From Promicromonospora umidemergens (lineage in GTDB: Bacteria; Actinomycetota; Actinomycetes; Actinomycetales; Cellulomonadaceae): a DNA stretch of 64,000 nt. Position numbers and translations under genes: made by a program. Shown in pieces: positions 8,794-29,934 of the stretch (positions are counted from its first letter, which is position 1; each line of letters begins with the position of its first letter). Below the pieces are notes generated by a model. The model saw nothing but the letters and a program-made list of their open reading frames with translations, was not told the DNA's origin and did no database searches. The stretch covers positions 186,001 to 250,000 of the forward strand of contig NZ_JAMTCT010000005.1 in assembly GCF_024171995.1 (NCBI RefSeq), given 5' to 3'.

Positions 8794-8848
8794 GTTCCAT
8801 CTTGACGTGCTTTCGGGCGGAGCGCGGGCCGGTCGGGCGGCCGGCCCC

Positions 8849-9311: not shown

Positions 9312-9345
9312 GGAGGCAGTGTTTCCGTTGCCGCAGTGGCTGTCG

Positions 9346-9362: not shown

Positions 9363-9397
9363 GGTGTTCGGCTCGGCGTTGAGCAACACTGGACGCC

Positions 9398-10180
9398 ATG
9401 CACACCGTGGGGGAGCTGCTTCGGCAGTGGCGGCAGCGCCGTCGGCTCAGCCAGCTCGATCTCGCGATCGCCGCCGATGTCTCTGCTCGGCACGTCAGTC
9501 TGGTCGAGACCGGCAAGTCCAGGCCGAGCGCCGACATGGTGCTCAGGCTCGCGGGCCAGCTCGACGTGCCGCTCCGGGACCGCAACCGGTTGCTGCTCGC
9601 CGCGGGCTTCGCTCCCCGGTACACCGAGCGGCCGCTCGACGGCGATGCGCTGGCGGCGGCTCGGGAGGCCGTCGGGCGGGTGCTCCGTGCGCACGAACCG
9701 TACCCGGCGCTCGTCTTCGACCGTCGGTGGAACATCCTGATGACCAACCGCGCCGTCGAGCCGTTCTTCGCGGGCGTCGCACCCGACCTGCTGCGCCCGC
9801 CGGTCAACCTGGTGCGGCTGGGGCTGGACCCGCGCGGCCTCGCCTCGTACGTCGTCAACCTGGCCGATGTGCGCGCGATGTTCCGGTCCCGGATCAGGCG
9901 CCAGCTCGCGGCAGTCCCTGACGCCGAGCTCACCACCCTCTATGAGGAGCTGCTGGCACCCGGCCCCGAGGACAAGACGGACGAGTCGATCGAGCCCGCG
10001 TCGGACGTCGTGATCCCCATGGTCATCCGGGTCGACGGCCGAGAGCTACGGCTGTTCTCGACGATCACCACGTTCGGCACCCCGATGGACATCACCTTGG
10101 CCGAGGTGGCCGTCGAGTCCTACTACCCGGCGGACGCGGAGAGCGCCGCCTACTTCACCCGGGCCGACGGCGACGCCTGA
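9398..10180 (+). CDS. XRE-family regulator with MmyB-like ligand domain
   Basis: 260 residues. Residues 5-60 form a Cro/C1 helix-turn-helix ([13 protein letters not shown], then [16 protein letters not shown]). The rest matches the MmyB-type C-terminal domain, including [16 protein letters not shown], thought to bind a fatty-acid-like ligand in this family. Such regulators typically sit divergent to one small enzyme gene that they repress, here the SnoaL protein. Its 3' end overlaps the convergent unknown gene by 31 bases. Confidence 0.9.
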
Positions 10181-13226: not shown

Positions 13227-13359
13227 CCCAATCGTCGAAAGTCGTGAGCGACGACCATATGCACGGTGCAGGGGAAGTACAAGGGGCCTGGGCGTGCGTC
13301 GACCAGGGCGCGCGGCCAGAGGCGCATGCCAGGCGGTGTGGGTCCAGCGTCCGACGGAG

Positions 13360-13432
<73 letters not shown>

Positions 13433-13574: not shown

Positions 13575-15254
13575 GTGACTCCAGGAACACGCTCCGCTGT
13601 GCTCGGCCGTCGGGGTGGTGTGGACCCGAACGTTGCGGAGCAGCTCGGCTTCACGGTGCACGACGTCGTACGCGATCTGCGTCGCGACGTCGCCGCCGCG
13701 ACCCTGCCCCTTCCCATCGACAGCGCCGAAGAGGCCGAAGCCTCCCGCAAACGACTCTTGGCGCAGCTCGACGAACACCTGCTGCCGCGCCTCGCCGAGC
13801 TGTCCAGCCCCGCCGTCGTCGTGCTGGCGGGCTCCACAGGAGCCGGCAAGTCCACCCTGTTCAACAGCCTGCTCCGCGAGGAGGTCTCCGACGCCGGGGT
13901 GCTGCGGCCGACCACCCGCGAGCCGGTGGTGGGCGTGCACCCGCGTGACGTCGACACGCTCACGCCCGGCCCCGTCACCGAGCTGGCCCGGCTCGTCAAG
14001 CACGAGGGCGTGCCGCGCGGCACCGCGCTGATGGACGCGCCCGACCTCGACTCGTTCCTGTCCGAGAACCGCTCCACCGCCCACCAGCTGCTCGAAGCCG
14101 CCGACCTCTGGCTGTTCGTCACCACCGCCGCCCGCTACGGCGACGCTCTGCCCTGGCAGGCGCTGGACCGCGCCAAGGAGCGCGGCGCGAGCGTCGCGAT
14201 GGTGCTCAACCGGGTGCCGAAGGACGACCTGAGGACGGTCCGCAAGGACCTCAACTCGCGGATGAAAGAGCGGGGGATGAAGGACGTCCCGCTGTTCATC
14301 GTGCTCGACGTCGGACCGCACGAAGGCCTGCTCGAGCCGAAGCTGGTGGAACCCATCCAGCGCTGGCTCGGCCTGATGGCCGGGCCCGAACGGTCGCGCA
14401 CGATCATCCTGCGCACGCTCAAGGGCGCGCTCGGTGCGCTCCCCGACTGGGTGATGGGACTGGTCGCCGCGGTGGAGGAGCAGGGCACCACGGCCTTCGA
14501 CCTGCGCAACGTCGTGGACTCGGTCGTCCCGGACGAGCAGCTGGCCGCACGCACCGCCGTGCTGTCCGGTGCGGCGGGCGAGGGCACGGTCGCCGCGCGG
14601 TTCGCCGAGCTGGCCGGCACCAAGCACATCTCCCGGGTCACGGTCCGCGACGGCATCGCACGGACGACCAAGCGCGCGGGCAGGAACCGGGAGGCGGCGC
14701 TCGTCAGCCTGCGTGAGGAGGTCGAGGCAACAGCCGCCCGCGCCTTCGTCGCGGCAGGCGTCCGCACCGAGGAGAGCCTGCGGTCCGTCCTCGCCGGGCC
14801 CGGCGCGCCACCCGCCGGAGAGACGATCCTGCCGGACGGCGGCGCCCGCGCCAAGGAGCGTCGCGCCTGGGGAGAGTCGCAAGCCACCGAGTGGTCCCGG
14901 CTGGCCGGCGACCTCGTCGCACGCATGGACGGGGCGGCCACCGAGAACACCGAGCCCGATGCACCGGCCCGGGCCGCGGGCGCTCGCAAGGCGTTCGGCG
15001 ACACCGGCCTCGCGACCCTCCTGCTGGCCACAGCGCTCGGGAACGACGACTCCGCACGGCTCGTCGACCGGCTGCTCGGCGAGACCGCGAGCGAAGCCAT
15101 CGAGGAGCTGCAGGGCGAACTTGCCGACAAGGTAGCGCTAGCGGTTGCGGAAGAGGCCCGTTCTGTCCAGAGTGCCCTTGACGTCCCCGCCTTAGCCGAC
15201 GACGCGGCCGCTCCGCTCCGCGTGCGGCTGGCCGAGCTCAGGAGGCTGACATGA
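13575..15254 (+). CDS. Dynamin-like GTPase A, copy 1
   Basis: About 559 residues from GTG 13575 (AGGATGA just before it); a TTG at 13554 is an in-frame alternative. GTPase motifs: P-loop GSTGAGKST near residue 86, switch threonines in LRPTT, G3 DAPD near 154, and a non-standard G4 region LNRVPKD instead of NKxD. The segment ADLWLFVTTAARYGDALPW is shared almost word for word with copy 2 at 21375. The C-terminal part is helical with only a short hydrophobic stretch (GLATLLLATALG). It overlaps the next GTPase gene by ATGA. The architecture resembles paired bacterial dynamin-like proteins such as DynA/DynB or IniA/IniC; membrane remodelling is inferred. Confidence 0.85.
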   Translation: MTPGTRSAVLGRRGGVDPNVAEQLGFTVHDVVRDLRRDVAAATLPLPIDSAEEAEASRKRLLAQLDEHLLPRLAELSSPAVVVLAGSTGAGKSTLFNSLLREEVSDAGVLRPTTREPVVGVHPRDVDTLTPGPVTELARLVKHEGVPRGTALMDAPDLDSFLSENRSTAHQLLEAADLWLFVTTAARYGDALPWQALDRAKERGASVAMVLNRVPKDDLRTVRKDLNSRMKERGMKDVPLFIVLDVGPHEGLLEPKLVEPIQRWLGLMAGPERSRTIILRTLKGALGALPDWVMGLVAAVEEQGTTAFDLRNVVDSVVPDEQLAARTAVLSGAAGEGTVAARFAELAGTKHISRVTVRDGIARTTKRAGRNREAALVSLREEVEATAARAFVAAGVRTEESLRSVLAGPGAPPAGETILPDGGARAKERRAWGESQATEWSRLAGDLVARMDGAATENTEPDAPARAAGARKAFGDTGLATLLLATALGNDDSARLVDRLLGETASEAIEELQGELADKVALAVAEEARSVQSALDVPALADDAAAPLRVRLAELRRLT

Positions 15255-16831
15255 CGAGCCATGACGCGACACTGAGCGCACGGACCGAGGACCTCGGACG
15301 AGCGCTGCAGATCGCGGGAGCACGCCTCGACGACGCCGTCTTCGGCAAGGTCGCCAGCTCCGTCGCGGGCGTGCGTGAACGGCTCGCGCTCGGCGTCGAC
15401 CACACGGTCGTGGCGCTCGCAGGCGGCACCGGGTCGGGCAAGTCGAGCATGTTCAACAAGATCTCCCGCCTCACGTTCGCGGACGTCGGGGTGAAGCGCC
15501 CCACCACCGCCAAGGTCACCGCCTGCTCGTGGAGCGACGACGCCGCGACGCTGCTGGACTGGCTCAGCGTGGAGCGCGAGCGCCGCATCACGCGGTCCAG
15601 CGAGCTCGACGCGGCCGACGAGGCGAGCCTCTCCGGGCTGGTGCTGCTGGACCTGCCCGACCACGACTCCGTCGCTCCGGGGCACCGGGAGGTGGTGGAC
15701 AAGGTGCTGCCGCTGGTCGACCTGCTCGTGTGGGTGGTGGACCCGCAGAAGTACGCCGACGACGCCCTGCACACGGGCTACCTGCGCGACTCGTCGGGCA
15801 TGCAGGCGTCGACGGTCGTGGTGCTCAACCAGATCGACACGGTCCCGGTGGGGCAGCGGGACAACCTGGTCAACGACGTCAAGCGCCTGCTGCGCGACGA
15901 CGGGCTGGAGAACGTCCCGGTGGTCGCGGCGTCGACCAAGACGGATATCGGCATCGCCGACCTGCGCGGGCTCCTGGAGCAGACGGTGGCGCGCCGGTCG
16001 GTCTCGGCGGGGCGGGCGGCGGGCGAGCTCGACGCCGCGGCGACCCTCCTGCTGAGCCAGACGCCGGCCGAGGTGCCATGGCACATCGACACGGTGCTCG
16101 AGCGTGAGGTGGACGCGCTGGCGCGTGCGGCGGGGCTGGAGTCGGTCGCCGCGCAGGTCGGCGCGGCAGTGCGCAACGGGTACGGCTCGCCGGAGTTCCG
16201 CAGCCCGGACCCGGACTCGATAGCCCTGTCCCGGTCACGCTGGCTCACCGGCTCGGGGGAGTCGCTCAAGCACGGCTGGCAGCGGTCGCTCGCCGCGAGC
16301 GTCGCGAGCGCCCAGGAGGTCGCGACGGCGGTGGTGAAGGCGCTGCAGGGCGTCACCCTCGACACCAGGGGTCCGACGACGCAGCGCCTCACCCGCCGGC
16401 TCGCGCTCGGGGCGGTGCTGGTCGCCGTGCTGCTCGGGACGGCCACCGTGCTGGCGTCGATGGGGGTGCTGCCCGCAGGGGAGACCTGGACCACGGTGCT
16501 CGGTGTGCTCGCCGTCGCGGCGGCCGTGACCGCGCTCGTGGTGTTCCTCGTGGCGATGCAGATGCGGCGCGCCCTGGCCTCGCGGCGGGCGCAGGGCGTC
16601 GTCGCGTCGGGCAGAGCGGCGCTCGAACGTGTGCTGCAGCAGACCCTCGGTGCGCCCACCCAGCGGCTGCTCGACGAGCACCGCGCGGTGCGTGAGCTCG
16701 CACAGAGTGCGCGGGACGACGGACCCGCCGCACCGCTCCGCCTGGAAGAGAACGCGACCACAGGCGGCTCGATCGGGGCTTCGTCCCCAGGTTCTGTCCG
16801 GTTCACCGACCTGGGCACCGTTCGCGCCTGA
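15251..16831 (+). CDS. Membrane-anchored GTPase B, copy 1 (YfjP-like)
   Basis: 526 residues. P-loop GGTGSGKSS (58-66), switch RPTT, G3 DLPDHD (134-139), G4 NQID (193-196), and WVVDPQKYAD (161-170), the last shared exactly with copy 2. Two transmembrane helices follow near residues 385-435, then a short cytoplasmic tail with a coiled-coil look. The start overlaps the stop of GTPase A by ATGA, so the two are made together and probably form a heteromeric membrane-associated pair. The single-strand binding protein gene follows after 53 bases. Confidence 0.87.
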   Translation: MTSHDATLSARTEDLGRALQIAGARLDDAVFGKVASSVAGVRERLALGVDHTVVALAGGTGSGKSSMFNKISRLTFADVGVKRPTTAKVTACSWSDDAATLLDWLSVERERRITRSSELDAADEASLSGLVLLDLPDHDSVAPGHREVVDKVLPLVDLLVWVVDPQKYADDALHTGYLRDSSGMQASTVVVLNQIDTVPVGQRDNLVNDVKRLLRDDGLENVPVVAASTKTDIGIADLRGLLEQTVARRSVSAGRAAGELDAAATLLLSQTPAEVPWHIDTVLEREVDALARAAGLESVAAQVGAAVRNGYGSPEFRSPDPDSIALSRSRWLTGSGESLKHGWQRSLAASVASAQEVATAVVKALQGVTLDTRGPTTQRLTRRLALGAVLVAVLLGTATVLASMGVLPAGETWTTVLGVLAVAAAVTALVVFLVAMQMRRALASRRAQGVVASGRAALERVLQQTLGAPTQRLLDEHRAVRELAQSARDDGPAAPLRLEENATTGGSIGASSPGSVRFTDLGTVRA

Positions 16832-16884
16832 TGCTGGGTGCGGACCGGCCGCTGGGGCCGGTCCGTGAACCCAGGAGGACTGAA

Positions 16885-17418
16885 ATGAACGACGTCACGG
16901 TGACCGTGTCGGGCTTCGCGGGCAACACCCCCGCGCTGCACGTCTCGAAGGACGCGGCCAAGGACCTGGAGTGGACCACGTTCCGCGTGGCCAGCACCAG
17001 GCGCTACCTGAACGAGAACGGCGACTGGACCGACGGCGCCACGCTGTGGTTCACGGTCAAGGCCTGGCGCACCGCCGCGCTGAACGTGATCAGGTCGGTG
17101 CGCAAGGGCGTCCCGGTGGTGGTGACGGGCCGCCTCGAGGTCGACGAGTGGACGGGCCCCGACGGCGCGCAGCGGACCGGGCTGGTGATCAACGCGACGG
17201 CGGTCGGCGTCGACGCCACCCGTGGCCAGGTGGAGTTCTCGCGGCTGGTGCACCACGACACGGTGCCCGACGGCGCTCCGGGCGCCTCGGGCGGTGGCGG
17301 CGGGCTGGCCTTGGCGCAGCCGGGCAGTGCCGACCCGTACGAGATCGACGCTCCGCGTGACGAGAGCGACCACGGTGCGGAGGCAGGTGTCCGGACCCCC
17401 GAGCTGGTGAACGCGTAG
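16885..17418 (+). CDS. ssb: Single-stranded DNA-binding protein
   Basis: 177 residues from ATG 16885, preceded by AGGAGG. The N-terminal OB fold of bacterial SSB is seen in MNDVTVTVSGFAG, WTTFRVAST and WFTVKAWRTAALNV, with GLVINATAVGVD closing it near residue 110. The acidic C terminus of canonical SSB (DDDIPF-like) is missing; the tail ends ...TPELVNA. This suggests the second, non-essential actinobacterial SSB type rather than the replication SSB in the rpsF operon. It lies between the GTPase pair and ettA. Confidence 0.87.
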   Translation: MNDVTVTVSGFAGNTPALHVSKDAAKDLEWTTFRVASTRRYLNENGDWTDGATLWFTVKAWRTAALNVIRSVRKGVPVVVTGRLEVDEWTGPDGAQRTGLVINATAVGVDATRGQVEFSRLVHHDTVPDGAPGASGGGGGLALAQPGSADPYEIDAPRDESDHGAEAGVRTPELVNA

Positions 17419-17541
17419 GCTTGGGCCAGTCGTGCTCCGCGGTCCGCGGGTGCTGGGGAATCCCTGCGCGGACACCCTGGCACCCGCGCCGTGTGAGCGC
17501 CCCCATCCGAAGTACCTACTGTGAACGGTGGAACACAGGCA

Positions 17542-19224
<1,683 letters not shown>

Positions 19225-19242
19225 CCTCGCGACCGCCCATGG

Positions 19243-19289
19243 AAGAGGGCTGTGACCGGCGTTCCAAACGCCGACCACAGCCCTCTTTT
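19243..19289 (+). terminator. Rho-independent terminator of ettA
   Basis: Perfect 12-base arms AAGAGGGCTGTG and complement, with a second small stem (GGCGT/ACGCC) inside the loop and TTTT at the end. It starts 18 bases after the ettA stop. Confidence 0.85.
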
Positions 19290-19356
19290 GTCGCGAAGGC
19301 CTACGACGAAAAAGGTCATCCTTGCCGCATCAGGACATGTTCGACAAGATGCCGCA

Positions 19357-20310
19357 GTGAGCCCTGCCCTACGACCCGGGTGGCGTGACCTTCCGCCCCC
19401 GCTGCGCGCCCGCATCACCAGCCTGCTCGGAGCCAGCGTGCTCGCCGCCGGACAGCCGGGCGACTCCGGGGTGCTCCCTGGCGCGCTGTTCCAGGTGCAG
19501 ACGTCGAGGGGCAACGCGTTCATCAAAGCGCTCGGCACGGAGCAGCCCGGCCCGCTGAAGTCGCTCCGGCAGGAGATCACGCTCTCGCCGCTGCTGCCGG
19601 CCGCCGTGCCTCACCCGGAGCTGCTGTGGTCGATCGACGAGGTCCTGCCGAACCTCGGCACCTGGGTGGCGGTCGGCTACTCGATGCGCGACGAGGTGCG
19701 GCCGATCGACCTCACCTGGCCAGAGGACGACGTCGCCACGCTGGTCCAGGTGGTGCGGGCGATCGGGGAGGTCGAGGCGCCCGACGACCCGATGTTCGTC
19801 CCCGAGGAGAGCGCGTTTCCCTCGAACTCGTGGGCGATCCTCGCCGAGAAGCGGCCCGCAGGGCTCGCGCAGCACTCGCCGTGGCTGGCCGGCCGGCTGG
19901 AAGGCCTCGCGGAGATCGCGGCGCACGCCCCGGAGGCGATAGCCGGCAAGAGCCTGCAGCACGGGACGCTGCGGGTGCAGAACGTCCTGCTGCCCGCGGT
20001 GCCGGGCGAGAGGCCGCTGATCACCGACTGGGTCCGGGGCAGCGTCGGTGCTCCGTACCTCGACCTGGTCTCGATGCTGATGCACGTGCGGACCAACGGC
20101 GGCCCGCCGCCCGAGGCCACGCTGCGCAGGTACGGGCTGCCGGCCGGGACGGAACCGGACGCCGTGACCTGCTGGATAGCGGTGCTCGCGGGGCACTACG
20201 TGAAAGCCTCGATGGACCCGCCGTCCTTCGACCTGCCCGAGCTGCGCTCGTACCAGCACCGGCTGGCCCGGACCGCGGTGTCCTGGCTGCAGACCCGGCT
20301 GGGTTTCTGA
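19357..20310 (+). CDS. APH-fold pseudokinase, first of tandem pair
   Basis: 317 residues from GTG 19357, chosen because the product then aligns at its start with the next gene (PALRPGWRDLPP versus AVRRPAWSDLPP). The C-terminal lobe carries the aminoglycoside-phosphotransferase pattern, but the catalytic HGD is HGT (202-204). The following Asn (N209) and the metal-binding Asp in ITDW (D224) are kept. Loss of the base aspartate predicts weak or no phosphotransfer. Such kinase folds can act as ligand or partner sensors. It starts 68 bases after the ettA terminator and 65 bases before its paralogue. Confidence 0.75.
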   Translation: MSPALRPGWRDLPPPLRARITSLLGASVLAAGQPGDSGVLPGALFQVQTSRGNAFIKALGTEQPGPLKSLRQEITLSPLLPAAVPHPELLWSIDEVLPNLGTWVAVGYSMRDEVRPIDLTWPEDDVATLVQVVRAIGEVEAPDDPMFVPEESAFPSNSWAILAEKRPAGLAQHSPWLAGRLEGLAEIAAHAPEAIAGKSLQHGTLRVQNVLLPAVPGERPLITDWVRGSVGAPYLDLVSMLMHVRTNGGPPPEATLRRYGLPAGTEPDAVTCWIAVLAGHYVKASMDPPSFDLPELRSYQHRLARTAVSWLQTRLGF

Positions 20311-20375
20311 CCCGCCGCAGTCGCCACCACTGACTGTGGTTTGCAGGGTGAACTTCCGTTGGGCAAACTCCGGCC

Positions 20376-21320
20376 ATGAGTGCTGTCCGGCGGCCGGCGT
20401 GGTCTGATCTCCCTCCCTCTGTCCGGTCCCGCGTGAGCGAGACCATGGGGGGACGCGTGATCGGTTCCGCTCCGATGAGCGGGACCGAGGAGTCGGGCAC
20501 CCTGGAGGTGCTGCAGACGGCGTCGGGCCGGTCGATCGTGCGCGCGGTGGGTCCGGAGGCTCCGCTGACGCAGGACCGGATGGCCGCCGAGGCGGTCTCC
20601 GTGGCCGCGCTGCCCGACGACATCCCGATCCTCCCGCGCGAGTGGTTCGTCGACGAGGTGCTGCCCGGGGCCGGACGCTGGGTGGTCCTCGGGTACCGCA
20701 ACGACCCCATCCGCCCGCCGCACGACCCCTGGGACGAGGCAGACCTCGCCGCGGCCGTCGAGCTCGCCATCCAGATCGGCACCAGCGAGGCGCCGGCGGG
20801 CCTGCCTGACGCGCTCGAGCTGATCGACGCCAACGCCTGGGCCACCATCGCGGCCATGCGGCCGCCCGGTCTGTCGGTCTTCACGCCATGGCTGCTCGAC
20901 AAGGTCGAGCACCTCGCAGAGATCGCCACCGGTGCGGCCGAGGCGATGTCCGGCACCAGCCTGGTGCACGGCGCGCTGCGGCGTGAGTCGATCATGATCA
21001 CCGACCACGGCTGGGACGCGACCAGCGCCCACGCGGTCGACTGGTTCATGCCGTCCCACGGCGCGTCCTTCCTCGACGTCGTGCTGCTGCTGCCGCACCT
21101 GCGGGTCGACGGCGCCCCGCCCCCTGAGGTGGTCATGGACCGCCACCCGCTGCCCGACGTCGACCCCGAGGCGCTCACCTGCGCCGTGACCGTCACCGCT
21201 GGAGCGCTCGTGCTCGAGTCGATGCGGCCGCCCCAACCCGGTCTGCCGCACGGCCGCGCCGTACAGCGCGAAGTGGCGCGCGCGGCGCTCGAGTGGCTGC
21301 GTGCCCGCCTCGGCGGTTGA
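20376..21320 (+). CDS. APH-fold pseudokinase, second of tandem pair
   Basis: 314 residues, ATG at 20376; paralogue of the preceding gene. The catalytic loop reads HGA (198-200) in place of HGD and the partner Asn is Ser (S205), while the Asp of VDW (D222) remains. It is therefore more degenerate than the first copy. Shared blocks include the N-terminal RPAWSDLPP, a WFVDEVLPGAGRWVVLGYR strand region and NGGPPPE/VDGAPPPE near the end. It is followed after 54 bases by the second GTPase pair, on the same strand. Confidence 0.75.
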   Translation: MSAVRRPAWSDLPPSVRSRVSETMGGRVIGSAPMSGTEESGTLEVLQTASGRSIVRAVGPEAPLTQDRMAAEAVSVAALPDDIPILPREWFVDEVLPGAGRWVVLGYRNDPIRPPHDPWDEADLAAAVELAIQIGTSEAPAGLPDALELIDANAWATIAAMRPPGLSVFTPWLLDKVEHLAEIATGAAEAMSGTSLVHGALRRESIMITDHGWDATSAHAVDWFMPSHGASFLDVVLLLPHLRVDGAPPPEVVMDRHPLPDVDPEALTCAVTVTAGALVLESMRPPQPGLPHGRAVQREVARAALEWLRARLGG

Positions 21321-21374
21321 TCTCTTTGCCGCACGACCGCGCCTGACCAGGGTCTCTGCGGCAGACTGTGCGGC

Positions 21375-23408
21375 ATGACCGATCAGCCCGACGACTCCGC
21401 TGCCCCTGGCGCACCGGACCCGGCGGCCGGCCCCGAGCCGACGGCCGAGCCCGGCGACGGGTCCGGCCTGACCGGTGCGCTGGAGGTGCTGCGCGCCCGG
21501 CTCGGCGCGCTGCGGCTGCCGTTGGAGACATCGGGGGCGGAGGCGGCGCGCACCGACCTGCGCCGAGCCACCGACCAGCTCGACGACTACCTGCTGCCCC
21601 GGTTGCGCGCGCAGAAGGCGCCGCTGCTCGTGGTGGTCGGTGGGTCGACGGGCGCGGGCAAGTCGACGCTCGTCAACTCGGTGCTGGGGGAGCGGGTCAC
21701 GCAGCCGGGTGTGCTGCGGCCCACCACGAAGGCGCCGGTGCTGGTGCACCACCCGCTGGACGCGCGCTGGTTCTCCACGGACCGGGTGCTGCCGGGGCTG
21801 GCGCGCGTGACGGCGTCGGGCACGGGGAGCGCCGCCGCGCAGGCGGGCGGGCAAGCGGGCGGGCAGGCGGGCGGGCAGGGCGGCGGAACGCCGGCCGAGC
21901 CGAGCCGCAACCTGCGCCTCGTGCCCAGCGACTCGCTGCCGAAGGGCCTGGCGCTGCTGGACGCACCCGACATCGACTCGGTCGACACGGCCAACCGTGA
22001 GCTCGCGGCGCAGCTGCTCGGGGCGGCGGACCTGTGGCTGTTCATCACGACGTCGGCCCGGTACGCCGACGCGGTGCCATGGGACCTGCTGCTGCAGGCC
22101 GCCGGACGCAAGGCGCAGGTGGCGATGGTGCTGGACCGCGTGGACCCGGGGGCGGAGGCCACCGCCGACGACCTGCGGGACATGATGGTGGAGCACGGCC
22201 TGGCGGACAGCCCGCTGTTCGTCATCCCCGAGGCCGAGCTGGTCGACGGGATGCTGCCGGAGGAGGGCGTGTCGGACGTGTCGCGCTGGCTCACCGGGCT
22301 GGGTGGCGACGCCGAGGCCCGCGGCCGCGTCATCGCTGCTACCCGCGACGGTGTGGTGGACTCCCTGGTCGTGCGGGCGGGCACCCTGGCCGACGCCGCC
22401 GACGAGCAGCAGGCCGCCGACGTCCGGCTGCGCCACGTCGTGGACCGCGCCTACGCGGACGCGGTGGCGCAGGTGACGGCGGCGACGTCGGACGGAGCGC
22501 TCCTGCGGGGCGAGGTGCTCGCCCGCTGGCAGGACTTCGTGGGCACCGGCGAGTTCTTCCGAGCCGTCGAGGAGGGCATCGGCCGGTTCCGGGACGCGGT
22601 GGCCGGGTTCTTCCGGGGCACGCCCAAGGCGGCGCCTCAGGTCGAGCAGGCTATCGCCCACGGCCTGGAGTCGGTGGTGCTGGACGCCGCAGAGGACGCC
22701 GCCGAGCGGTCCTACCAGGGGTGGCGGGGGGACGCCGCCGGCGCGGCGCTCCTGGAGGGCCTGGAGCTCCTCCGCACGCCCGCGGCACTGCGCTCGGAGG
22801 TGACCGGTCAGATCCGCGGCTGGCAGGGCGACGTCCTGGAGCTCGTGCGTGAGCAGGGCTCGGCCAAGCGCGGTACGGCACGGGCGCTGTCGCTGGGTGT
22901 GAACGGGCTCGGCGTCGCGCTGATGGTCTTCGTGTTCGCCTCGACGGGCGGGCTGACCGGTGTCGAGGTCGGCATCGCGGGCGGATCGGCGGTGCTGGCC
23001 CAGCGGGTGCTGGAGGCAGTGTTCGGCGAGGACGCCGTACGTCGGCTCGCCGCGCAGGCGCGCGACCGGCTGCGCGCCCGCATCCAGGCGGTCATGGACG
23101 GGCAGGCGGCGCGGTACACGGCGCAGCTGGACGCGCTCGGCTCCGCGGAGGCGGGCGGGGAGCGTCTGCGCGTCGCGGCCGGTGCCGTCGCCTCGGCCGC
23201 CTCGGCGGAGCGCCGCGTACGCCTGCGCGCCGCTGAGGCGGCCCCCGCCGCCGGAGCGGGTGCCGAGGACAGCACCGCGAGCGGCGGGCTGCGCGGCGTG
23301 CACGCCCGGCCTGCGGGCGAGGTCCTGGCGAAGGGTGGCACCGACCTGGCGGAGGAGCCGGCCAGGAAGGGCTTCTGGAAGCGGCTGTTCGGGGAGGGCG
23401 ACCGGTGA
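21375..23408 (+). CDS. Dynamin-like GTPase A, copy 2
   Basis: 677 residues, ATG at 21375. P-loop GSTGAGKST (90-98), LRPTT, G3 DAPD, and ADLWLFITTSARYADAVPW pair it with GTPase A copy 1. The G4 region reads LDRVDPG. It is about 120 residues longer than copy 1. A Gly/Gln/Ala repeat near 153-171 is inserted after the switch region, and a hydrophobic hairpin (LGVALMVFVFASTGGL) near residue 520 may insert into membrane, a feature nearly lost in copy 1. The C-terminal tail is rich in Ala, Glu and Arg. It overlaps the next gene by ATGA. Confidence 0.86.
   Translation: MTDQPDDSAAPGAPDPAAGPEPTAEPGDGSGLTGALEVLRARLGALRLPLETSGAEAARTDLRRATDQLDDYLLPRLRAQKAPLLVVVGGSTGAGKSTLVNSVLGERVTQPGVLRPTTKAPVLVHHPLDARWFSTDRVLPGLARVTASGTGSAAAQAGGQAGGQAGGQGGGTPAEPSRNLRLVPSDSLPKGLALLDAPDIDSVDTANRELAAQLLGAADLWLFITTSARYADAVPWDLLLQAAGRKAQVAMVLDRVDPGAEATADDLRDMMVEHGLADSPLFVIPEAELVDGMLPEEGVSDVSRWLTGLGGDAEARGRVIAATRDGVVDSLVVRAGTLADAADEQQAADVRLRHVVDRAYADAVAQVTAATSDGALLRGEVLARWQDFVGTGEFFRAVEEGIGRFRDAVAGFFRGTPKAAPQVEQAIAHGLESVVLDAAEDAAERSYQGWRGDAAGAALLEGLELLRTPAALRSEVTGQIRGWQGDVLELVREQGSAKRGTARALSLGVNGLGVALMVFVFASTGGLTGVEVGIAGGSAVLAQRVLEAVFGEDAVRRLAAQARDRLRARIQAVMDGQAARYTAQLDALGSAEAGGERLRVAAGAVASAASAERRVRLRAAEAAPAAGAGAEDSTASGGLRGVHARPAGEVLAKGGTDLAEEPARKGFWKRLFGEGDR
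21838..21888 (+). repeat. GC-rich tandem repeat encoding Gly-Gln-Ala
   Basis: Imperfect 12-base units (GGCGGGCAGGCG) inside the GTPase gene give QAGG repeats. It is a low-complexity insertion within the GTPase domain not present in the paralogue. Confidence 0.65.
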
Positions 23409-25138
23409 GCCGGCTCGACCTGGGCGACCGGACCACGGCCCTCGCCACGGCTGTCGAGGCCGCGGAGGGCCGGATCGAGCCCGCCCTCCTGGGGGAGGCG
23501 CGTGCCGTCGTGAACCGGGCGCGCGAGCGCGGCGGGCTGTCCGCCGAGCACACGGTGGTCGCACTGGCGGGCGCGACGGGCTCGGGCAAGTCGTCGGTCC
23601 TGAACGCGGTGGCGGGCGTCGCTGTCGCGCAGCCGGGCGTGCGGCGCCCGACGACGTCGCACCCGATGGCCGCCGTCTGGGGCGAGGGCGCGGACCCGCT
23701 CCTGGACTGGCTGGAGGTCAGCCGACGGCACCAGGTCGGTGTGGAGCCCGTGTCTGCCGAGACCGGGCCGTTCCGTCGTCGGACACCGGCCGGGGACGCG
23801 ACCGGGCTGGTGCTGCTGGACCTGCCCGACCACGACTCGATAGTGACCGAGCACCGCATGCGCGCGGAGCGCCTGGTGCGGCGCGCCGACCTGCTGGTCT
23901 GGGTGGTCGACCCGCAGAAGTACGCGGACGCCGCCCTCCACGAGGGGTTTCTGCGCCCCCTGGCGGGTCGCGCGGAGGTGGTGGTCGTCGCGCTCAACCA
24001 GGTCGACCGCCTCACGCCGGACGAGACGTCGGCGATGCTCGCCGACCTCGAACGGCTGGTGGCCGAGGACGGGCTGCGCGGGGCGCGGGTCCTCGCGGTG
24101 TCCGCAAGGACGGGCCAGGGCATGGACGACCTGAGGGGCCTGCTGGCGAAGGCGGCGGCCAAGCGGGAGGCCGCCACGGCCCGGCTCGCCGCGGACGAGC
24201 GGGCCGTGGCGCAGCAGATCATGGACGAGTGCGGCACACCGCCGTCGTCCCGCCTGGGGGGCCAGGCCCGGGGTGACCTGGTTGCGGCCCTCGAGGCAGC
24301 GGCGGGAGTGCCGACGGTGGTCGACGCCGTGCGCGCCTCCGCCCGTCGTGACGCGCGCGCGGCGACCGGCTGGCCGCTGACCCGCTGGGTCGGGCGGTTG
24401 CGCAAGGACCCGCTGCGCCGGCTGGGGCTGCGCTCGACGGACCGGGAGCACCGGGCGCCGTCGGGCCGCGAGGACCTGATGCGCACGTCGCTGCCGACGG
24501 CGCGGCCTGCGGTGCGGTCCGCCGCGGCGTCGGCCGTTCGGCGCTACGTCGAGGAGGTGACCAGGGGCGTCGCGGACCCATGGGTCCTGGCCGCGCGCTC
24601 GCGCGGCCAGGCGGGCATCGACCAGCTGCCCGACGCGCTCGACCAGGCAGTCGCCACGACCCGCGTCGAGGCGTCCCGCCGGCCCGTGTGGTGGTCGCTC
24701 GTCAACGTCGTGCAGTGGGCCCTGGTCACCGTGGTGGTGGCGGGCCTGCTGTGGCTGCTGGTGCTGTTCGGCTTCGCGTACCTCCAGCTCCCGCCGCTGC
24801 CGACCCCCGTGGTGACGCTGCCGACCTGGTCGGGCGACGACGGCCTCGTGTTCCCAGGGACGCCGGAGTCCGGCTCGGGCGACGGCCTCGGCGTCGACCC
24901 GTTCCGGATCCCGTGGCCCACCCTCATGGTGCTGGGCGGCCTCGCGCTCGGCCTGCTGCTCGCGCTGGTCTGCCGGGTGTTCGGCGCGCTGGGCGCCCGG
25001 CGTCGGGCACACGGCGCCCGACGCCGGCTCAAGCAGTCGGTCGGCGCGGTCGCCGACGGGCTGGTGCGCACGCCGGTGTCGGAGGAGCTGTCCCAGCTAG
25101 CGAGCTGCCGGGCGGCGGCGACGATCGCCGCGAGCTGA
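23405..25138 (+). CDS. Membrane-anchored GTPase B, copy 2
   Basis: 577 residues, start overlapping GTPase A copy 2 by GTGA. P-loop GATGSGKSS (56-64), RPTT, G3 DLPDHD (139-144), WVVDPQKYAD exactly as in copy 1, and G4 NQVD (198-201). Two long transmembrane helices lie near 424-455 and 495-520 with a Pro-rich extracytoplasmic loop between them, then a basic cytoplasmic tail. The pairing and order (A then B) repeat those of 13575-16831, showing duplication of a two-gene module. Confidence 0.87.
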   Translation: MSRLDLGDRTTALATAVEAAEGRIEPALLGEARAVVNRARERGGLSAEHTVVALAGATGSGKSSVLNAVAGVAVAQPGVRRPTTSHPMAAVWGEGADPLLDWLEVSRRHQVGVEPVSAETGPFRRRTPAGDATGLVLLDLPDHDSIVTEHRMRAERLVRRADLLVWVVDPQKYADAALHEGFLRPLAGRAEVVVVALNQVDRLTPDETSAMLADLERLVAEDGLRGARVLAVSARTGQGMDDLRGLLAKAAAKREAATARLAADERAVAQQIMDECGTPPSSRLGGQARGDLVAALEAAAGVPTVVDAVRASARRDARAATGWPLTRWVGRLRKDPLRRLGLRSTDREHRAPSGREDLMRTSLPTARPAVRSAAASAVRRYVEEVTRGVADPWVLAARSRGQAGIDQLPDALDQAVATTRVEASRRPVWWSLVNVVQWALVTVVVAGLLWLLVLFGFAYLQLPPLPTPVVTLPTWSGDDGLVFPGTPESGSGDGLGVDPFRIPWPTLMVLGGLALGLLLALVCRVFGALGARRRAHGARRRLKQSVGAVADGLVRTPVSEELSQLASCRAAATIAAS

Positions 25139-25180
25139 CCCAACCCTTCGTTGCGCTCACAACAAAGCCTGGTGGGTCAG
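25135..25180. terminator. Bidirectional stem-loop between convergent genes
   Basis: Perfect outer arms CTGACCCA (25135-25142) and TGGGTCAG (25173-25180) contain the stop codons of both convergent genes, GTPase B and the thioesterase. Confidence 0.55.
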
Positions 25181-25677
25181 CCGCGGTGGCGGAATGTGAC
25201 CGGGGGTTCCTCGAACTCCTTCCAGGCCAGCCGCTCGCCCTCGGTGAGCCTCCGGGGCTGGTTCGTGGCGGCGTCGACGAACACGAGAGTCGTGGTGGCG
25301 CGGGCGTAGGGCTTGCCGCCCGACGTCGGACCGGTCTTCGCCATGCCCGCGGTGCCGTCGTGCACCTCGTAGCAGACCTCGGCGCTCGCACCACCGATCC
25401 GGCCGAGCCACATCTCGACGCGCACCGGCGTGCGCGTGAACAGCAGCGGCCGCAGGTACTCGATGCGCTGGCCGGCCACGAGGGTGTGCGAGTCGGCGTC
25501 GGGCCCGGTGGGGACCACCGCCGTCGGCCAGGCCTCGCCCTCTGGCGCCTCGGGGTGCAGCCAGAAGGCGGTGATCCGGGCGTCCTCCAGCAGGCGGAAC
25601 ATCGCGACGTTGTTGACGTGCGCGTACGCGTCGAGGTCGGACCAGCGCAGCGTGACGGGGACGTGGAGGCGTGTCAT
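25177..25677 (-). CDS. Hot-dog acyl-CoA thioesterase (4HBT family)
   Basis: 166 residues from ATG 25677; an upstream in-frame extension to 25947 is not protein-like. The YbgC/FadM-type motif LRWSDLDAYAHVNNVA carries the catalytic Asp and the start of the long hot-dog helix. Further strands (RIEYLRPLLF, VRVEMWLGRIG, ATTTLVFVDA) complete one hot-dog domain. These enzymes hydrolyse acyl-CoA; chain specificity is unknown. A TesB thioesterase is encoded nearby at 26982. Confidence 0.87.
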   Translation of the reverse strand: MTRLHVPVTLRWSDLDAYAHVNNVAMFRLLEDARITAFWLHPEAPEGEAWPTAVVPTGPDADSHTLVAGQRIEYLRPLLFTRTPVRVEMWLGRIGGASAEVCYEVHDGTAGMAKTGPTSGGKPYARATTTLVFVDAATNQPRRLTEGERLAWKEFEEPPVTFRHRG

Positions 25678-25801
25678 GGTGCCTATTTTCCTCCACGTGA
25701 AGTACCCGCCGTTCTGCCGCGATGGCAGGCCGGGCTGAGTGGTCCTCAGCCTGCCCGAATTGGTAGATTCATCCCTCTTGGTTTTCGCCACGGAGGAACA
25801 G

Positions 25802-26452
25802 TTGGATCTGCCCAGGCACCATTTCGACCCGGTGACGCTGCACGAGGTGCTGGACGACGTCCCGGTCGCCCAGGCGTACCGCACCGAGCTGGCGGGACGC
25901 CCGGACCGCGACACACCGGACGTCCTTGCCGTACTGGTACCGCTCACGCGCTGGCTCGCCCCGGAGGCGGACGATCCCGACAGCGCGCTGGCCGAGGCCG
26001 AGCGTCTCGGCTGGCTCGCCGTCCGGCTGAACGGAGGCCCGGGCGACGACGCGGCGGCAGCGCACTCGAACGCCTCCGACGTACCCCTCGGGTCGGTCCC
26101 GTCACTGCTACGGTTGGCCCACGTGCTGCAGTGGCGGCACCGCTTCCCGGAGGCGGACCTGCTGTTCGGCCTGGCCCTGGAGGCGGCGCACTACTACGGG
26201 GAGCATGCCGCGAGCATCGAGCACGCGCACAGGCTCGAGTACTGCGCACTGCAGCACTGGGGCAAGTGCCGCTACGACCAGGCGCTCGAGGTCCATGCGG
26301 ACCAGGCGCGGCCCTATCTCGGCGAGGCCCTCGCCCTGTTCGAGCGCGCTCTGGAGCTCCGGGTGGAGGCAGGCGCGGCGCCGGAGCACGTGGCGGCCAC
26401 GCGCGAGGCGATCAGTGCCGCGCGCGACCGGCTGGCTGAGCTGGGGGCGTGA
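25802..26452 (+). CDS. Hypothetical helical protein
   Basis: 216 residues if translation begins at TTG 25802, which is preceded by the best ribosome site in the region (GGAGGA, 25792-25797); a GTG at 25739 would add 21 residues. No family recognised. It is almost all helical in appearance, with a central RLAHVLQWRHRFPEADLLFGLALEAA and a further HWGKCRYDQALEVHADQARP, which look like TPR-style helix pairs. Acidic overall. Divergent from the hot-dog thioesterase, so it may be controlled from the same short region. Confidence 0.7.
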   Translation: MDLPRHHFDPVTLHEVLDDVPVAQAYRTELAGRPDRDTPDVLAVLVPLTRWLAPEADDPDSALAEAERLGWLAVRLNGGPGDDAAAAHSNASDVPLGSVPSLLRLAHVLQWRHRFPEADLLFGLALEAAHYYGEHAASIEHAHRLEYCALQHWGKCRYDQALEVHADQARPYLGEALALFERALELRVEAGAAPEHVAATREAISAARDRLAELGA

Positions 26453-26491
26453 CGGCGGGGCCCCGTGGTCGGCTTCGGGTGGACCTCGTCG

Positions 26492-26971
26492 TCAGCGGGG
26501 CTGATCGCGGTATGCGAGGTTGACGCTCAGTGCGCCCGCCAGCGCCCACTGAAGCTCCGCCGCGACGGATCCGGCAGGGCGTGGGGTTCGGGTGAGCGTG
26601 TCGGCGCGGCGCTCGACGTCGAACAGGGTGTCTCCGTCGACGGCCCACAGGCGGGACCAGAAGCTTGCCAGGCGGCCCGGGGCAGGCCACGCCTCGACGA
26701 CGATCTGGAGCACGGCGTCGGCGTCGTCGAGTGTCGTACCGGGCCAGGGGGCGCCGTCGTCGATGTCTGTGCCGGCCGGGGAGTCGGATCGGTCGGTGTC
26801 ACCCGGCGTTGTTTCGTGTCCGACGGCGTTCGCGGGCGCGCGCAGGACGTCGAGCGGGGGAAGCGCGACCTGCAGTGCAGGCCACAGGGTCTGTGGGGAG
26901 GCGAGGCGGAGCTCGGCACCCGGCTCGATCAGGACGCGGCCGTCGCGTTCGGTGATGGCTTGGACGATCAC
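26492..26971 (-). CDS. Hypothetical protein downstream of tesB
   Basis: 159 residues, ATG at 26971, ten bases after the tesB stop, so it is probably co-translated. No family recognised. An N-terminal beta-rich part (VQAITERDGRVLIEPGAEL) is followed by a Thr/Asp/Gly-rich low-complexity middle and a helical, Trp-containing C-terminal half (LQIVVEAWPAPGRLASFWSR). Acidic and soluble. Confidence 0.6.
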   Translation of the reverse strand: MIVQAITERDGRVLIEPGAELRLASPQTLWPALQVALPPLDVLRAPANAVGHETTPGDTDRSDSPAGTDIDDGAPWPGTTLDDADAVLQIVVEAWPAPGRLASFWSRLWAVDGDTLFDVERRADTLTRTPRPAGSVAAELQWALAGALSVNLAYRDQPR

Positions 26972-26981
26972 CAGATGCCCG

Positions 26982-27938
26982 CTACGCCGACAGCCGGATC
27001 ATGCCCTCCTGGCCGGCGGAGGCCACCAGCGCGCCGTCCTGCGTGTAGACCTTCGCCGTCCCCAGTGCCCGGCCGCCCTGCGCCGTCGGCGAGGTCTGCA
27101 CGAACAGCATCCACTCGTCCACCCGGACGTCGCGGTGCCACCACATGCCATGGTCGAGGCTCGCCATGGGTACCGAAGCACCGACGTCCTGCCACGACTT
27201 CCCGGCGGCGCGCAGGGCGGGCTCGAGCATGAGCTGGTCGCACGCGAAGGCCAGCAGGGCGCGGTGCATGGCCTGCTCCTTGACCTCCAGCGGGCGGCGG
27301 GTGCGCATCCAGACCATCTGGGTGGCGGGCGGCACACCGCCGTCGGCCACCGCCGTGTCCGGGTTCAGGTAGAGCGAGCCGCCCACGTGCCGCAGCTCGA
27401 ACGCCGAGTCCGTCCAGAACTGGGCCCGGACCGCGACTCCCTCGGGCAGGGTGGCTAGCTCGTCGAAGGCGGAGCCCACCTCGTCGGGCGCGGGGACGCC
27501 GTCGGGCATCGGCATCATGTGCTCGTAGCCGGGCTGGTCCTCCTGGAAGGACGCGATCATCGACAGGATCGGCTTGCCGAACTGGATCGCGTGGGTACGC
27601 CGCGCACTGAACGAACGTCCGTCGCGCAGCCGCTCGACCGCGAAGTCGATGGGCTCCTCGACCCGTCCCTCGCGCAGGAAGTACCCGTGCAGCGAGTGGA
27701 TCAGGCGGCCGTCGGGCACGGTGCGGTCCGCGGCCAGGATCGCCTGGGCGAGCACCTGCCCGCCGTAGGCGCGGTTGGCCGGGCCGGGCATGCTGTCTCC
27801 GCGCAGCACGTCCTCCTCGCCGCGCGGGCCCCAGCCCTCGAGGTGCCGCAGGTCGAGCACCTGCAGCAGGCGGTCGAGCGCGTCGGGCTGGCTGTCCGAC
27901 GGGGTGCCGGAGATCGGGTCAGGGGTGGTGGCGTCCAC
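26982..27938 (-). CDS. tesB: Acyl-CoA thioesterase II
   Basis: 318 residues with two tandem hot-dog domains as in TesB. Family markers seen: RAYGGQVLAQAI in the first domain, HSLHGYFLREG, SFSARRTHAIQ, and in the second domain MASLDHGMWWHRDVRVDEW, which bears the Asp of the catalytic Asp-Thr-Gln set, followed by GGRALGTAKVY. It releases free fatty acids from acyl-CoA in the cytoplasm. It lies between glbO upstream (27 bases) and a small unknown gene, all on the minus strand and likely one transcript. Confidence 0.93.
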   Translation of the reverse strand: MDATTPDPISGTPSDSQPDALDRLLQVLDLRHLEGWGPRGEEDVLRGDSMPGPANRAYGGQVLAQAILAADRTVPDGRLIHSLHGYFLREGRVEEPIDFAVERLRDGRSFSARRTHAIQFGKPILSMIASFQEDQPGYEHMMPMPDGVPAPDEVGSAFDELATLPEGVAVRAQFWTDSAFELRHVGGSLYLNPDTAVADGGVPPATQMVWMRTRRPLEVKEQAMHRALLAFACDQLMLEPALRAAGKSWQDVGASVPMASLDHGMWWHRDVRVDEWMLFVQTSPTAQGGRALGTAKVYTQDGALVASAGQEGMIRLSA

Positions 27939-27965
27939 GAGCGGGCGTCTCCTCGTCGTTCCTGG

Positions 27966-28358
27966 TCAGTCTTCGAACGTGTTGATCATGCTGAAGGCGG
28001 CGCGCTCCAGGTAGTCCCACAGCTGCGACTCGTGGATCGGCGCGAGGTCGAGGGAGTCGACGGCGGTCCGCATGTGGGCGAGCCAGCGGTCCCGCGCCTC
28101 GGGGTTGACCTTGAACGGCACGTGGCGCATGCGCAGGCGCGGGTGCCCGCGCTGCGCCGAGTAGGTGTTCGGACCGCCCCAGTACTGTTCGAGGAACATC
28201 GTGAAGCGCTCCTTCGCGGGCCCCAGGTCCTCCTCGGGATACATGGGGCGCAGCACCGGGTCGTCGGCCACGCCGTCGTAGAAGGCGTCGACGAGACGGA
28301 CGAACGTGTCGTGGCCTCCGACGGCGTCGAAGAAGGATTCCTGTGTCACGCTCGTCAT
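27966..28358 (-). CDS. glbO: Group II truncated haemoglobin GlbO
   Basis: 130 residues from ATG 28358; a long upstream in-frame extension is non-coding. It matches mycobacterial GlbO closely in spacing: SFFDAVGG at the start, MYPEEDLGPAKER, MFLEQYWGGP, and YSAQRGHPRLRMRHVPF containing the proximal His. The Trp of the distal pocket (EQLWDYL-like, here SQLWDYLE) is present. It binds oxygen and probably handles peroxide or NO. First gene of a short minus-strand operon with tesB. Confidence 0.93.
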   Translation of the reverse strand: MTSVTQESFFDAVGGHDTFVRLVDAFYDGVADDPVLRPMYPEEDLGPAKERFTMFLEQYWGGPNTYSAQRGHPRLRMRHVPFKVNPEARDRWLAHMRTAVDSLDLAPIHESQLWDYLERAAFSMINTFED

Positions 28359-28502
28359 CCTGCCACCCGACGGTGACAGCACGATGTCGGTCCCGTGAAA
28401 CGGAGTCTCATGTGACCGAATCGACAGCACCGTGGGCGAAACGCTTGCGGGGACCGCTAGGCTGGTCGTAGACCTGCAGCGACGCACGGTGGGAGTTGAG
28501 AC

Positions 28503-28736
28503 ATGACCAAGGCTGACCAGATCCTTGCGGCACTCGGAGGGACCTCGAACGTCGTCGAGCTGGAGCCGTGCATCACTCGGCTCCGAGTCGAGGTGAGCGA
28601 TCCGTCCCTCGTGGACGAGCCGGGGCTGAAGTCGTCCGGCGCGTTCGGCGTGGTCCGGTCCGGCCGGGTGGTCCAGGTGATCGTCGGGCCAGAGGCGGAC
28701 AACCTCGCCGCGGAGCTCGAGACGCTCAGAGTCTGA
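28503..28736 (+). CDS. Stand-alone PTS glucose-family EIIB domain
   Basis: 77 residues, ATG at 28503. It is a single EIIB domain of the glucose/N-acetylglucosamine PTS family: the phosphorylated cysteine sits in ELEPCITRLRVEV (C23), after QILAALGGTSNVV. The usual fused EIIC membrane domain is absent and no other PTS gene is adjacent, so it either partners with an EIIC encoded elsewhere or works as a regulatory phosphoprotein. Followed by a perfect palindromic terminator. Confidence 0.9.
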   Translation: MTKADQILAALGGTSNVVELEPCITRLRVEVSDPSLVDEPGLKSSGAFGVVRSGRVVQVIVGPEADNLAAELETLRV

Positions 28737-28761
28737 CGGTGAGCTCGGCGGCATGACCGCG

Positions 28762-28785
28762 CGGGCCCGGGAGCTCCCGGGCCCG
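28762..28785 (+). terminator. Perfect 24-bp palindromic terminator
   Basis: Self-complementary 24-base palindrome centred on GAGCTC, 26 bases after the EIIB stop. Confidence 0.7.
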
Positions 28786-28914
28786 TGACCGGCCTCACGA
28801 TCCTGCGGCCGTACCTGCGTGTGCGGCGAAAGCCGTGTGAAGGTCGCGCAGGAGTCCGTCGTACCTGCCTTGAGATGTCCGATCCGGCTCCCGGACCCGA
28901 GTAGGTTTGCCACC

Positions 28915-29934
28915 GTGTTCGAGTCTCTTGCTGCCTCCGTCTTCGACAGCGCCGAAGGTTTCTGGTCCTGGTTCCTGGGTATCCCCCTGCGGGTGATCCT
29001 GACGATCGTGATCGGCATGGTCGCGATCTATGTCCTGCGGCGCGTCATCACCTCCCTCACCGAGCGCATCGCCCTGGGCCAGAAGCCCCGGACGGTCGAG
29101 CGTACGGCCGACCCCGTTGGCACCACGACGGGTGGTGCGCCCGTACCCGGTGCGGGCGAGAAGCGACGTCGCAAGAACATGCTGATGTCGCCGCAGGCCT
29201 TTGCCGACGCCCTGAACGCCGCCAACCCGCGGGCCGCCGAACGGCGCGCCCAGCGCGCACGGACCGTCGGCTCGGTGCTGAACTCGTCGGTCAACATCGT
29301 GGTCGGCACGGTCATCGTGCTGTCCGTCCTGCAGACCCTCACGTTCGACATCGCGCCGCTGCTGGCCGGCGCCGGTGTGGCGGGCGTCGCCATCGGTTTC
29401 GGCGCGCAGAGCCTGGTCAAGGACTTCCTCTCCGGCATCTTCCTGCTCATCGAGGACCAGTTCGGCGTGGGCGACATCGTCGACCTCGACGGCGGCGTGG
29501 TCGGCACCGTCGAGGCGATGGGCCTGCGCCTCACCCAGGTGCGCGCGTTCGACGGCACCCTCTGGTACGTCCGCAACGGCGAGATCCTGCGCGCCGGCAA
29601 CAGCACCCAGGAGTGGAGCCGCGCCGTGGCGTCGGTGCAGGTCCCGCTCGGTACCGACGTCGACGTCGTCCGGGCCGCCCTCGGCCGCGCCGTCGACCGG
29701 GTGAAGAACGACCCCGAGGTCGCCGACAGCCTCCTGGAGACGCCGTCCGTGCGCGGCGTCGACGCGGTGGACCGCATGGGCCTGACCTTCACGCTGCACG
29801 CGCAGGTGCGCCCCGCCCAGCAGTGGCTCGTCGCCCGGTCGCTGCGCGTGGCGGCCCACGCGGCCCTGCTCGACGCCGGTGTGGTCCTGGCGACCTCCAC
29901 GCTCCCGCACGACGAGGGCCCCGCAGAAGCCTGA
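28915..29934 (+). CDS. Small-conductance mechanosensitive channel (MscS family)
   Basis: 339 residues from GTG 28915; an opening upstream to 28819 has no ribosome site. Transmembrane helices near residues 15-45 and 125-175 lead to the pore helix and its Gly/Ala pattern (LAGAGVAGVAIGFGAQSLVKDFLSG), then the MscS beta domain beginning FGVGDIVDLDG. A charged, Lys/Arg-rich cytoplasmic loop separates the first two helices. The family opens on membrane tension to release osmolytes. A 66-base palindromic element begins 17 bases after its stop. Confidence 0.92.
   Translation: MFESLAASVFDSAEGFWSWFLGIPLRVILTIVIGMVAIYVLRRVITSLTERIALGQKPRTVERTADPVGTTTGGAPVPGAGEKRRRKNMLMSPQAFADALNAANPRAAERRAQRARTVGSVLNSSVNIVVGTVIVLSVLQTLTFDIAPLLAGAGVAGVAIGFGAQSLVKDFLSGIFLLIEDQFGVGDIVDLDGGVVGTVEAMGLRLTQVRAFDGTLWYVRNGEILRAGNSTQEWSRAVASVQVPLGTDVDVVRAALGRAVDRVKNDPEVADSLLETPSVRGVDAVDRMGLTFTLHAQVRPAQQWLVARSLRVAAHAALLDAGVVLATSTLPHDEGPAEA

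What the first reader, a model, noticed from the sequence alone, without database searches (positions are those of the whole stretch)
13575..25138. Duplicated dynamin-like GTPase module bracketing ssb, ettA and a pseudokinase pair
Two copies of an A-B GTPase gene pair (13575-16831 and 21375-25138) lie in the same orientation and order, each joined by a four-base overlap. The A proteins share the block ADLWLF(I/V)TT(A/S)ARY(A/G)DA(L/V)PW and the B proteins share WVVDPQKYAD exactly. The B members each have two C-terminal membrane helices. Between the pairs sit ssb, ettA and two catalytically altered kinase-fold genes. Bacterial dynamins work as pairs in membrane remodelling, stress or phage defence; pseudokinases could be sensors or adaptors. 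Whether the 11.5-kb block works as one system is inference, but its symmetry is not explained by housekeeping genes alone.
Basis: partly seen in the sequence, partly recalled or inferred. Interest (0 to 1): 0.75.

Follow-up and report, generated by a model that had tools for sequence, protein, structure and literature searches.

The report
Two dynamin pairs plus dead kinases
A soil bacterium carries two different pairs of membrane-shaping dynamin-like genes on either side of two ordinary genes, with two kinases beside the second pair that have lost their catalytic residue yet are still being preserved; most of this is a local variant of a known bacterial cell-division module.

Summary
In detail: two same-strand A-B dynamin-like pairs with 4-base overlaps flank ssb, ettA and two altered kinase-fold genes, in Promicromonospora. 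The 'one symmetric system' reading does not. (1) A-B-ssb-ettA is a common actinobacterial neighbourhood, also in Streptomyces, where the pair is very probably DynA/DynB (FtsZ-ring stabilisers). (2) The two pairs look like older paralogues, not a local duplicate (AU p 0.031, modest). (3) A strong hairpin behind ettA suggests two transcription units: A1-B1-ssb-ettA and K1-K2-A2-B2. (4) Of 18 other-genus genomes with both pairs here, only 2 have a kinase at the site. New details: A1 lacks the hydrophobic segment that A2 keeps; all four GTPase families read DxPDxDS instead of DxxG at switch II (336 of 337 sequences); both kinases lost the catalytic Asp in 13 of 13 Promicromonospora genomes but evolve under purifying selection, while kinases at the same site in two sister genera are intact. 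A septal function is inferred from Streptomyces; the kinase role is a guess. Known kind, new variant.

The parts
13575..15254 (+). A1: dynamin-like GTPase without a strong hydrophobic segment, pair 1
15251..16831 (+). B1: dynamin-like GTPase with two C-terminal membrane segments, pair 1
16831..17418 (+). ssb-like gene without the usual acidic C-terminal tip
17521..19224 (+). ettA (ABC-F translation factor)
19243..19287 (+). hairpin behind ettA followed by TTTTG, probable transcription terminator
19252..20310 (+). K1: APH-fold pseudokinase, HGD changed to HGT; real start probably near 19357
20376..21320 (+). K2: paralogue of K1, HGD changed to HGA, beta-3 Lys changed to Arg, motif Asn changed to Ser
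21375..23408 (+). A2: dynamin-like GTPase with one hydrophobic segment, pair 2
23405..25138 (+). B2: dynamin-like GTPase with two C-terminal membrane segments, pair 2

Best explanation
The locus holds two older paralogous actinobacterial dynamin-like pairs. Pair 1 stands in the widespread position directly upstream of ssb-ettA; pair 2 follows ettA as a probable separate transcription unit. In each pair B is anchored in the membrane by two helices and A is its partner GTPase; A2 also has a hydrophobic segment that could dip into the membrane, A1 does not. Most likely each A-B pair forms a membrane-bound hetero-oligomer at the division septum, as DynA/DynB do in Streptomyces where they stabilise FtsZ rings, with the two pairs used at different septa or stages. 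K1/K2 descend from an intact APH-fold kinase that entered at the 5' end of the pair 2 unit; having lost the catalytic Asp but being under purifying selection, they most likely act as binding or adaptor proteins made together with A2-B2. Shown here: gene order, homology, predicted fold of A2 and K1, hydrophobic segments, motif changes, selection, hairpin. Inferred: hetero-oligomer, septal role, division of labour, role of the kinases.
For: Dynamin fold of A2: best PDB matches BDLP (E 3.4e-9), SynDLP, the Campylobacter DLP pair, IniA. Same neighbourhood in three Streptomyces-like genomes and in 14 of 20 class-level loci. Published role of DynA/DynB: PMC8748795 sections 11-12 and PMC6428758 passages. 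Membrane segments by family. Tree and AU test. Hairpin. Kinase motif table and dN/dS 0.33 and 0.18; kinases at the site between ettA and A2.
Against: No function was tested in this family. Which of the two pairs is the DynA/DynB orthologue is open: one search places the Streptomyces pair on the pair 1 side, on the pair 2 side (99), and BLAST favours A2 and, by bit score, B2. AU p 0.031 is modest and the group was named after an earlier tree. DxPDxDS at switch II may mean unusual nucleotide chemistry. The hairpin may not stop all transcription. No evidence shows that K1 or K2 binds A2 or B2.
Confidence: 0.6

Rival explanations
1. The whole block is one co-evolved system: the pseudokinases sense or adapt and both dynamin pairs act together.
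For: Symmetric order on one strand; both pairs flank ssb-ettA in 18 of 24 other-genus family genomes; kinases kept in 13 of 13 Promicromonospora genomes.
Against: Kinases at the site in only 2 of those 18 genomes; 5 of the 24 have pair 1-ssb-ettA without pair 2; pairs stand apart in other families (L050-L055); hairpin behind ettA.
Confidence: 0.08
2. The pairs serve envelope stress, drug tolerance or phage defence, like IniA/IniC or the Leo proteins, rather than division.
For: IniA is among the best fold matches of A2 (E 1.5e-6); IniA/IniC are an actinobacterial DLP pair (PMC6715688, passages); weak PADLOC matches to LeoBC/LeoA (best E 2.9e-5).
Against: Stable place beside ssb-ettA across many families is unlike a mobile defence locus; the same neighbourhood in Streptomyces very probably is dynAB.
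Confidence: 0.2
3. K1 and K2 are decaying remnants of a kinase with no present function.
Against: Two kinases per genome in 13 of 13 genomes; median dN/dS 0.33 (K1) and 0.18 (K2), lower for the more altered K2.
Confidence: 0.12

Closest known systems
Streptomyces DynA/DynB
   Same: Adjacent dynamin-like pair; in three Streptomyces-like genomes the pair lies upstream of ssb and ettA, 44-46% (A against A2) and 37-39% (B against B2) identical over the matched part; same DxPDxDS motif.
   Different: Here there are two pairs, one behind ettA; orthology of each is unresolved; septal role not tested here.
Mycobacterial IniA/IniC
   Same: Actinobacterial DLPs; IniA structures among the matches to the A2 model.
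   Different: Different neighbourhood (iniBAC operon, PMC6715688 passages); IniA was not found by sequence profile among the 60 listed PDB matches.
Campylobacter DLP1/DLP2 and cyanobacterial BDLP
   Same: Fold: E 1.1e-6 and 3.4e-9 to the A2 model; paired genes in the Campylobacter case.
   Different: Low identity (10-14%); no link to ssb-ettA known to me.
APH-type small-molecule kinases, such as APH(9)-Ia
   Same: Fold of the K1 model, E 2.6e-6; PF01636 match of K1.
   Different: Catalytic Asp replaced in both K1 and K2, so no resistance or ordinary kinase activity is suggested.

Membership tests
Dynamin superfamily, bacterial DLP | GTPase domain with P-loop and a Dynamin_N match | tested here: met
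   P-loops in all four; Dynamin_N above cut-off in B1, A2, B2, just below in A1 (25.7 against 27 bits)
Dynamin superfamily, bacterial DLP | GTPase domain plus long helical stalk | tested here: met
   A2 only: model and PDB matches; A1, B1, B2 not modelled
Dynamin superfamily, bacterial DLP | Membrane-contact segment | tested here: met
   Hydropathy: B1, B2 two segments, A2 one; A1 has none, so it fails this alone
Dynamin superfamily, bacterial DLP | Classical switch II motif DxxG | tested here: not met
   DxPDxDS in 336 of 337 sequences; membership therefore rests on fold and homology, not on this motif
Streptomyces DynA/DynB type | Neighbouring A-B pair, B with two membrane segments, upstream of ssb-ettA | tested here: met
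Streptomyces DynA/DynB type | Orthology of a given pair to DynA/DynB | tested here: inconclusive
   disagree; the published locus was tied to the Streptomyces-like loci through partly recalled gene numbers
Streptomyces DynA/DynB type | Septal localisation and Z-ring stabilisation | not testable with these tools
   needs microscopy and mutants
Leo or other defence dynamins | Strong match to a defence model | tested here: not met
   best E 2.9e-5, 21.4 bits, partial; no curated cut-off is given there
APH-family pseudokinase | Kinase fold with conserved loss of a catalytic residue and purifying selection | tested here: met
APH-family pseudokinase | No phosphotransfer activity | not testable with these tools
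   needs purified protein

The most novel reading that the evidence does not exclude
The actinobacterial DynA/DynB-type family as a whole uses an altered switch II (DxPDxDS, aspartate in place of the glycine) and, in the A partners, mostly a G4 motif without NKxD, so these dynamins may act as nucleotide-bound scaffolds with little ordinary hydrolysis; and in Promicromonospora two catalytically dead, selected pseudokinases were recruited as regulators or adaptors of the second pair, with the intact kinase still at the same site in sister genera.
Probability: 0.25. Interest if true: 0.6.

Novelty: new variant of a known kind. Interest (0 to 1): 0.42.

Why it matters
It would tie the uncharacterised twin dynamin pairs of the Promicromonospora/Cellulomonas family to the DynA/DynB divisome module, show how two paralogous pairs diverged in membrane contact, and offer a natural series (intact kinase, one intact and one dead, both dead but selected) for how a kinase turns into a pseudokinase beside a membrane machine. 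The switch II change makes a plain biochemical question testable: do actinobacterial DynA/DynB hydrolyse GTP in the usual way at all?

Tried and rejected
Single-protein searches of solved structures gave nothing specific: K1 no match at E 1, A2 and B1 only weak matches (best E 0.1 and 0.17). Profile searches with A7 and A4 gave mainly generic GTPases, so switch II of known DLPs could not be set side by side. The simple promoter and terminator scan found 0 sites; it missed the hairpin, I think because its stem is interrupted. Rejected: local tandem duplication (AU p 0.031; group named after the tree, so the p is optimistic). A second AU test did not finish; the smaller tree replaced it and contradicts on the Streptomyces pair. 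The GTPase-domain tree left the deep forks open.

Paper searches: EttA with dynamin-like terms, 0 papers; pseudokinase/APH/actinobacteria/dynamin, 1 unrelated paper; DynA/DynB/ssb/genus names, 0 papers; dynamin-like gene clusters, 8 papers; DxxG/G3/bacterial dynamin, 18 papers of which 8 were listed, one opened in passages. That the switch II point is new rests on these alone. The main DynA/DynB paper (PNAS 2017) is not held and was not read. Of PMC8748795 I saw sections 11 and 12 and passages; of PMC6428758, PMC3765725, PMC6715688, PMC7968930, PMC6637917, PMC4754617 and PMC4159319 passages only.

Full report
What is there. The window lies in a 6.6-Mb genome of Promicromonospora: same-genus genomes G010, G011 and G012 have contigs of the same lengths as named contigs of P. 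sukumoe, P. thailandica and P. iranensis. Eight same-strand genes run A1-B1-ssb-ettA-K1-K2-A2-B2. A1/B1 and A2/B2 overlap by 4 bases and B1/ssb by 1; the gaps are 102 (ssb-ettA), 27 (ettA-K1 as listed), 65 (K1-K2) and 54 (K2-A2) bases.

The GTPases are dynamin-like. Dynamin_N passes its cut-off in B1, A2 and B2 and just misses it in A1 (25.7 against 27 bits). A model of A2 on 53 sequences (mean pLDDT 82.5) has a GTPase domain and long helices; its best PDB matches are BDLP (E 3.4e-9), SynDLP, the Campylobacter DLP pair and IniA, with 49 matches at E <= 0.001. TM-scores to the query are low (about 0.2-0.4); different conformations may be the reason (inference). A1, B1 and B2 were not modelled.

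Hydrophobic segments. With 19-residue windows (Kyte-Doolittle mean >= 1.6) in the C-terminal 45%, two segments are seen in 120 of 127 B2-family rows and 37 of 48 B1 rows, one in 124 of 128 A2 rows, none in 39 of 47 A1 rows (some genomes occur twice). So the B proteins are anchored, A2 may insert, and A1 has mostly lost the segment.

Switch motifs. The four families read DxPDxDS where DxxG is classical: 44 of 44 A1, 124 of 125 A2, 45 of 45 B1 and 123 of 123 B2 distinct sequences, three Streptomyces-like pairs included; left out were loci L064-L109, open-ended frames and rows of 250 bits or less. DxPG was found in the same stretch in 1 B2 row. G4 is NQxD in most B rows and mainly (N/D)RVP or DRVD in the A rows. 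That DxxG is the classical consensus is stated in PMC4159319 (passages). What the change does is unknown.

Neighbourhood. Of 24 other-genus genomes of the family (G013-G036), 18 have A1-B1-ssb-ettA-A2-B2 in this order (G017 with A1 cut by a contig end), 5 have pair 1-ssb-ettA only, and 1 has no match. Of 15 loci fetched from 12 genomes outside the family, 4 have pair 1 with ssb downstream (L047 with a gap of about 5.8 kb, L055 without ettA in the held stretch), 6 have pair 2 upstream of ssb (5 of them with ettA too), and 5 have pair 2 alone. Of 20 class-level loci 14 have ssb and/or ettA downstream of the pair. The B2 profile matches 138 of 296 genomes of the class.

Link to DynA/DynB. Three genomes (G510, G599, G732) of one large genus have 11 chaplin matches each, by recall a mark of Streptomyces. 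Their pair lies upstream of ssb and ettA, with other sequence between these two. In G599 and G510 each of the two Dynamin_N matches was checked: one is this A gene, the other a 35-residue P-loop match in a 418-aa frame elsewhere. In G599 chaplin matches lie about 11, 17 and 34 kb from the A gene, which fits my recall of chpG, chpF and chpA/chpD relative to SCO2685. SCO2685 corresponds to sven2472, there called a putative ATP-binding protein (PMC3765725, one passage); that sven2472 is dynA is recall. DynA and DynB are vnz_12110 and vnz_12105 (PMC6428758, passages). DynB acts beside SepX in Z-ring stability and is found in other actinobacteria (PMC8748795, sections 11-12). So the module is a known kind. 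That the neighbouring ssb is SsbB is recall only.

Local duplicate or older paralogues? On 69 joined A+B rows (1106 columns, chosen by me from 173 pairs) pair 1 is one clade (support 100) apart from the family's pair 2, which groups with free-standing Micrococcaceae pairs and others. Forcing pair 1 together with the family's pair 2 costs 37 log units, AU p 0.031; the group was named after the tree. The place of the Streptomyces pair is open: on the pair 1 side, on the pair 2 side with support 99 in the 46-row set, where the other grouping was almost equally likely (0.03 log units). BLAST favours A2 for A, and for B gives B2 more bits but B1 a higher identity over a shorter stretch.

Two units. 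Behind ettA lies a hairpin with 21-nt arms followed by TTTTG (19243-19287; fold z -7.2). In relatives, the 100 bases behind ettA fold with z < -2 in 32 of 44 loci with pair 2 downstream and in 26 of 48 without, against 1 of 92 for the last 100 bases of ettA (some genomes occur twice). A simple terminator scan found none. The K1 frame as listed begins inside the hairpin; relatives suggest a start near 19357 (inference).

The kinases. K1 is modelled with mean pLDDT 71 and matches APH(9)-Ia best (E 2.6e-6). Homologues occur in 65 of 297 genomes of the order at E <= 1e-8 and, at E <= 1e-36, in 41 of 221 of the family. Of 46 kinase loci fetched, 22 have both ettA and A2 within the held 1.5-kb flanks; of the others some have one of the two, with a second kinase or a contig end in the way; the 16 loci L068-L083, L106 and L109 have neither. 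Kinases at this site are seen in genera g1, g3, g7, g14 and g21 of the family, but in only 2 of the 18 double-pair genomes above. Median dN/dS is 0.33 for K1 (13 genomes) and 0.18 for K2 (12; one copy fell out by the identity filter). They are kept as proteins though unlikely to be normal kinases. Their place at the 5' end of the pair 2 unit suggests a link with A2-B2, no more.

Verdict. A true observation whose core is a known actinobacterial dynamin module in an unusual double form with a clade-specific pseudokinase addition. One 11.5-kb system is unlikely. Worth bench work: the switch II change, the lost segment of A1, and what the dead kinases bind.

Noticed in passing
window 13359-13432: A tRNA-Arg (anticodon tct) on the minus strand just upstream of A1.
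   Followed up: no
window 16831-17418: The SSB of this locus lacks the usual tip: of 89 SSB C-termini at such loci 3 end in F and none in IPF, LPF or VPF. A second SSB-like match lies elsewhere in the genome (G000:C27:6503-6901, E 6.9e-9).
   Followed up: partly
window 17445-17488: An imperfect inverted repeat (19-nt arms, 79% complementary) between ssb and ettA.
   Followed up: no
   Followed up: no
L210, L211 (G771, G777): Two Streptomyces-like genomes hold a Dynamin_N match far stronger (91 and 62 bits) than the ssb-linked pair, so perhaps another DLP type.
   Followed up: no
window 7171-9936 and 25177-29934: Neighbours: an ATP-dependent DNA ligase on the minus strand, two thioesterases, a globin and a mechanosensitive channel.
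   Followed up: no
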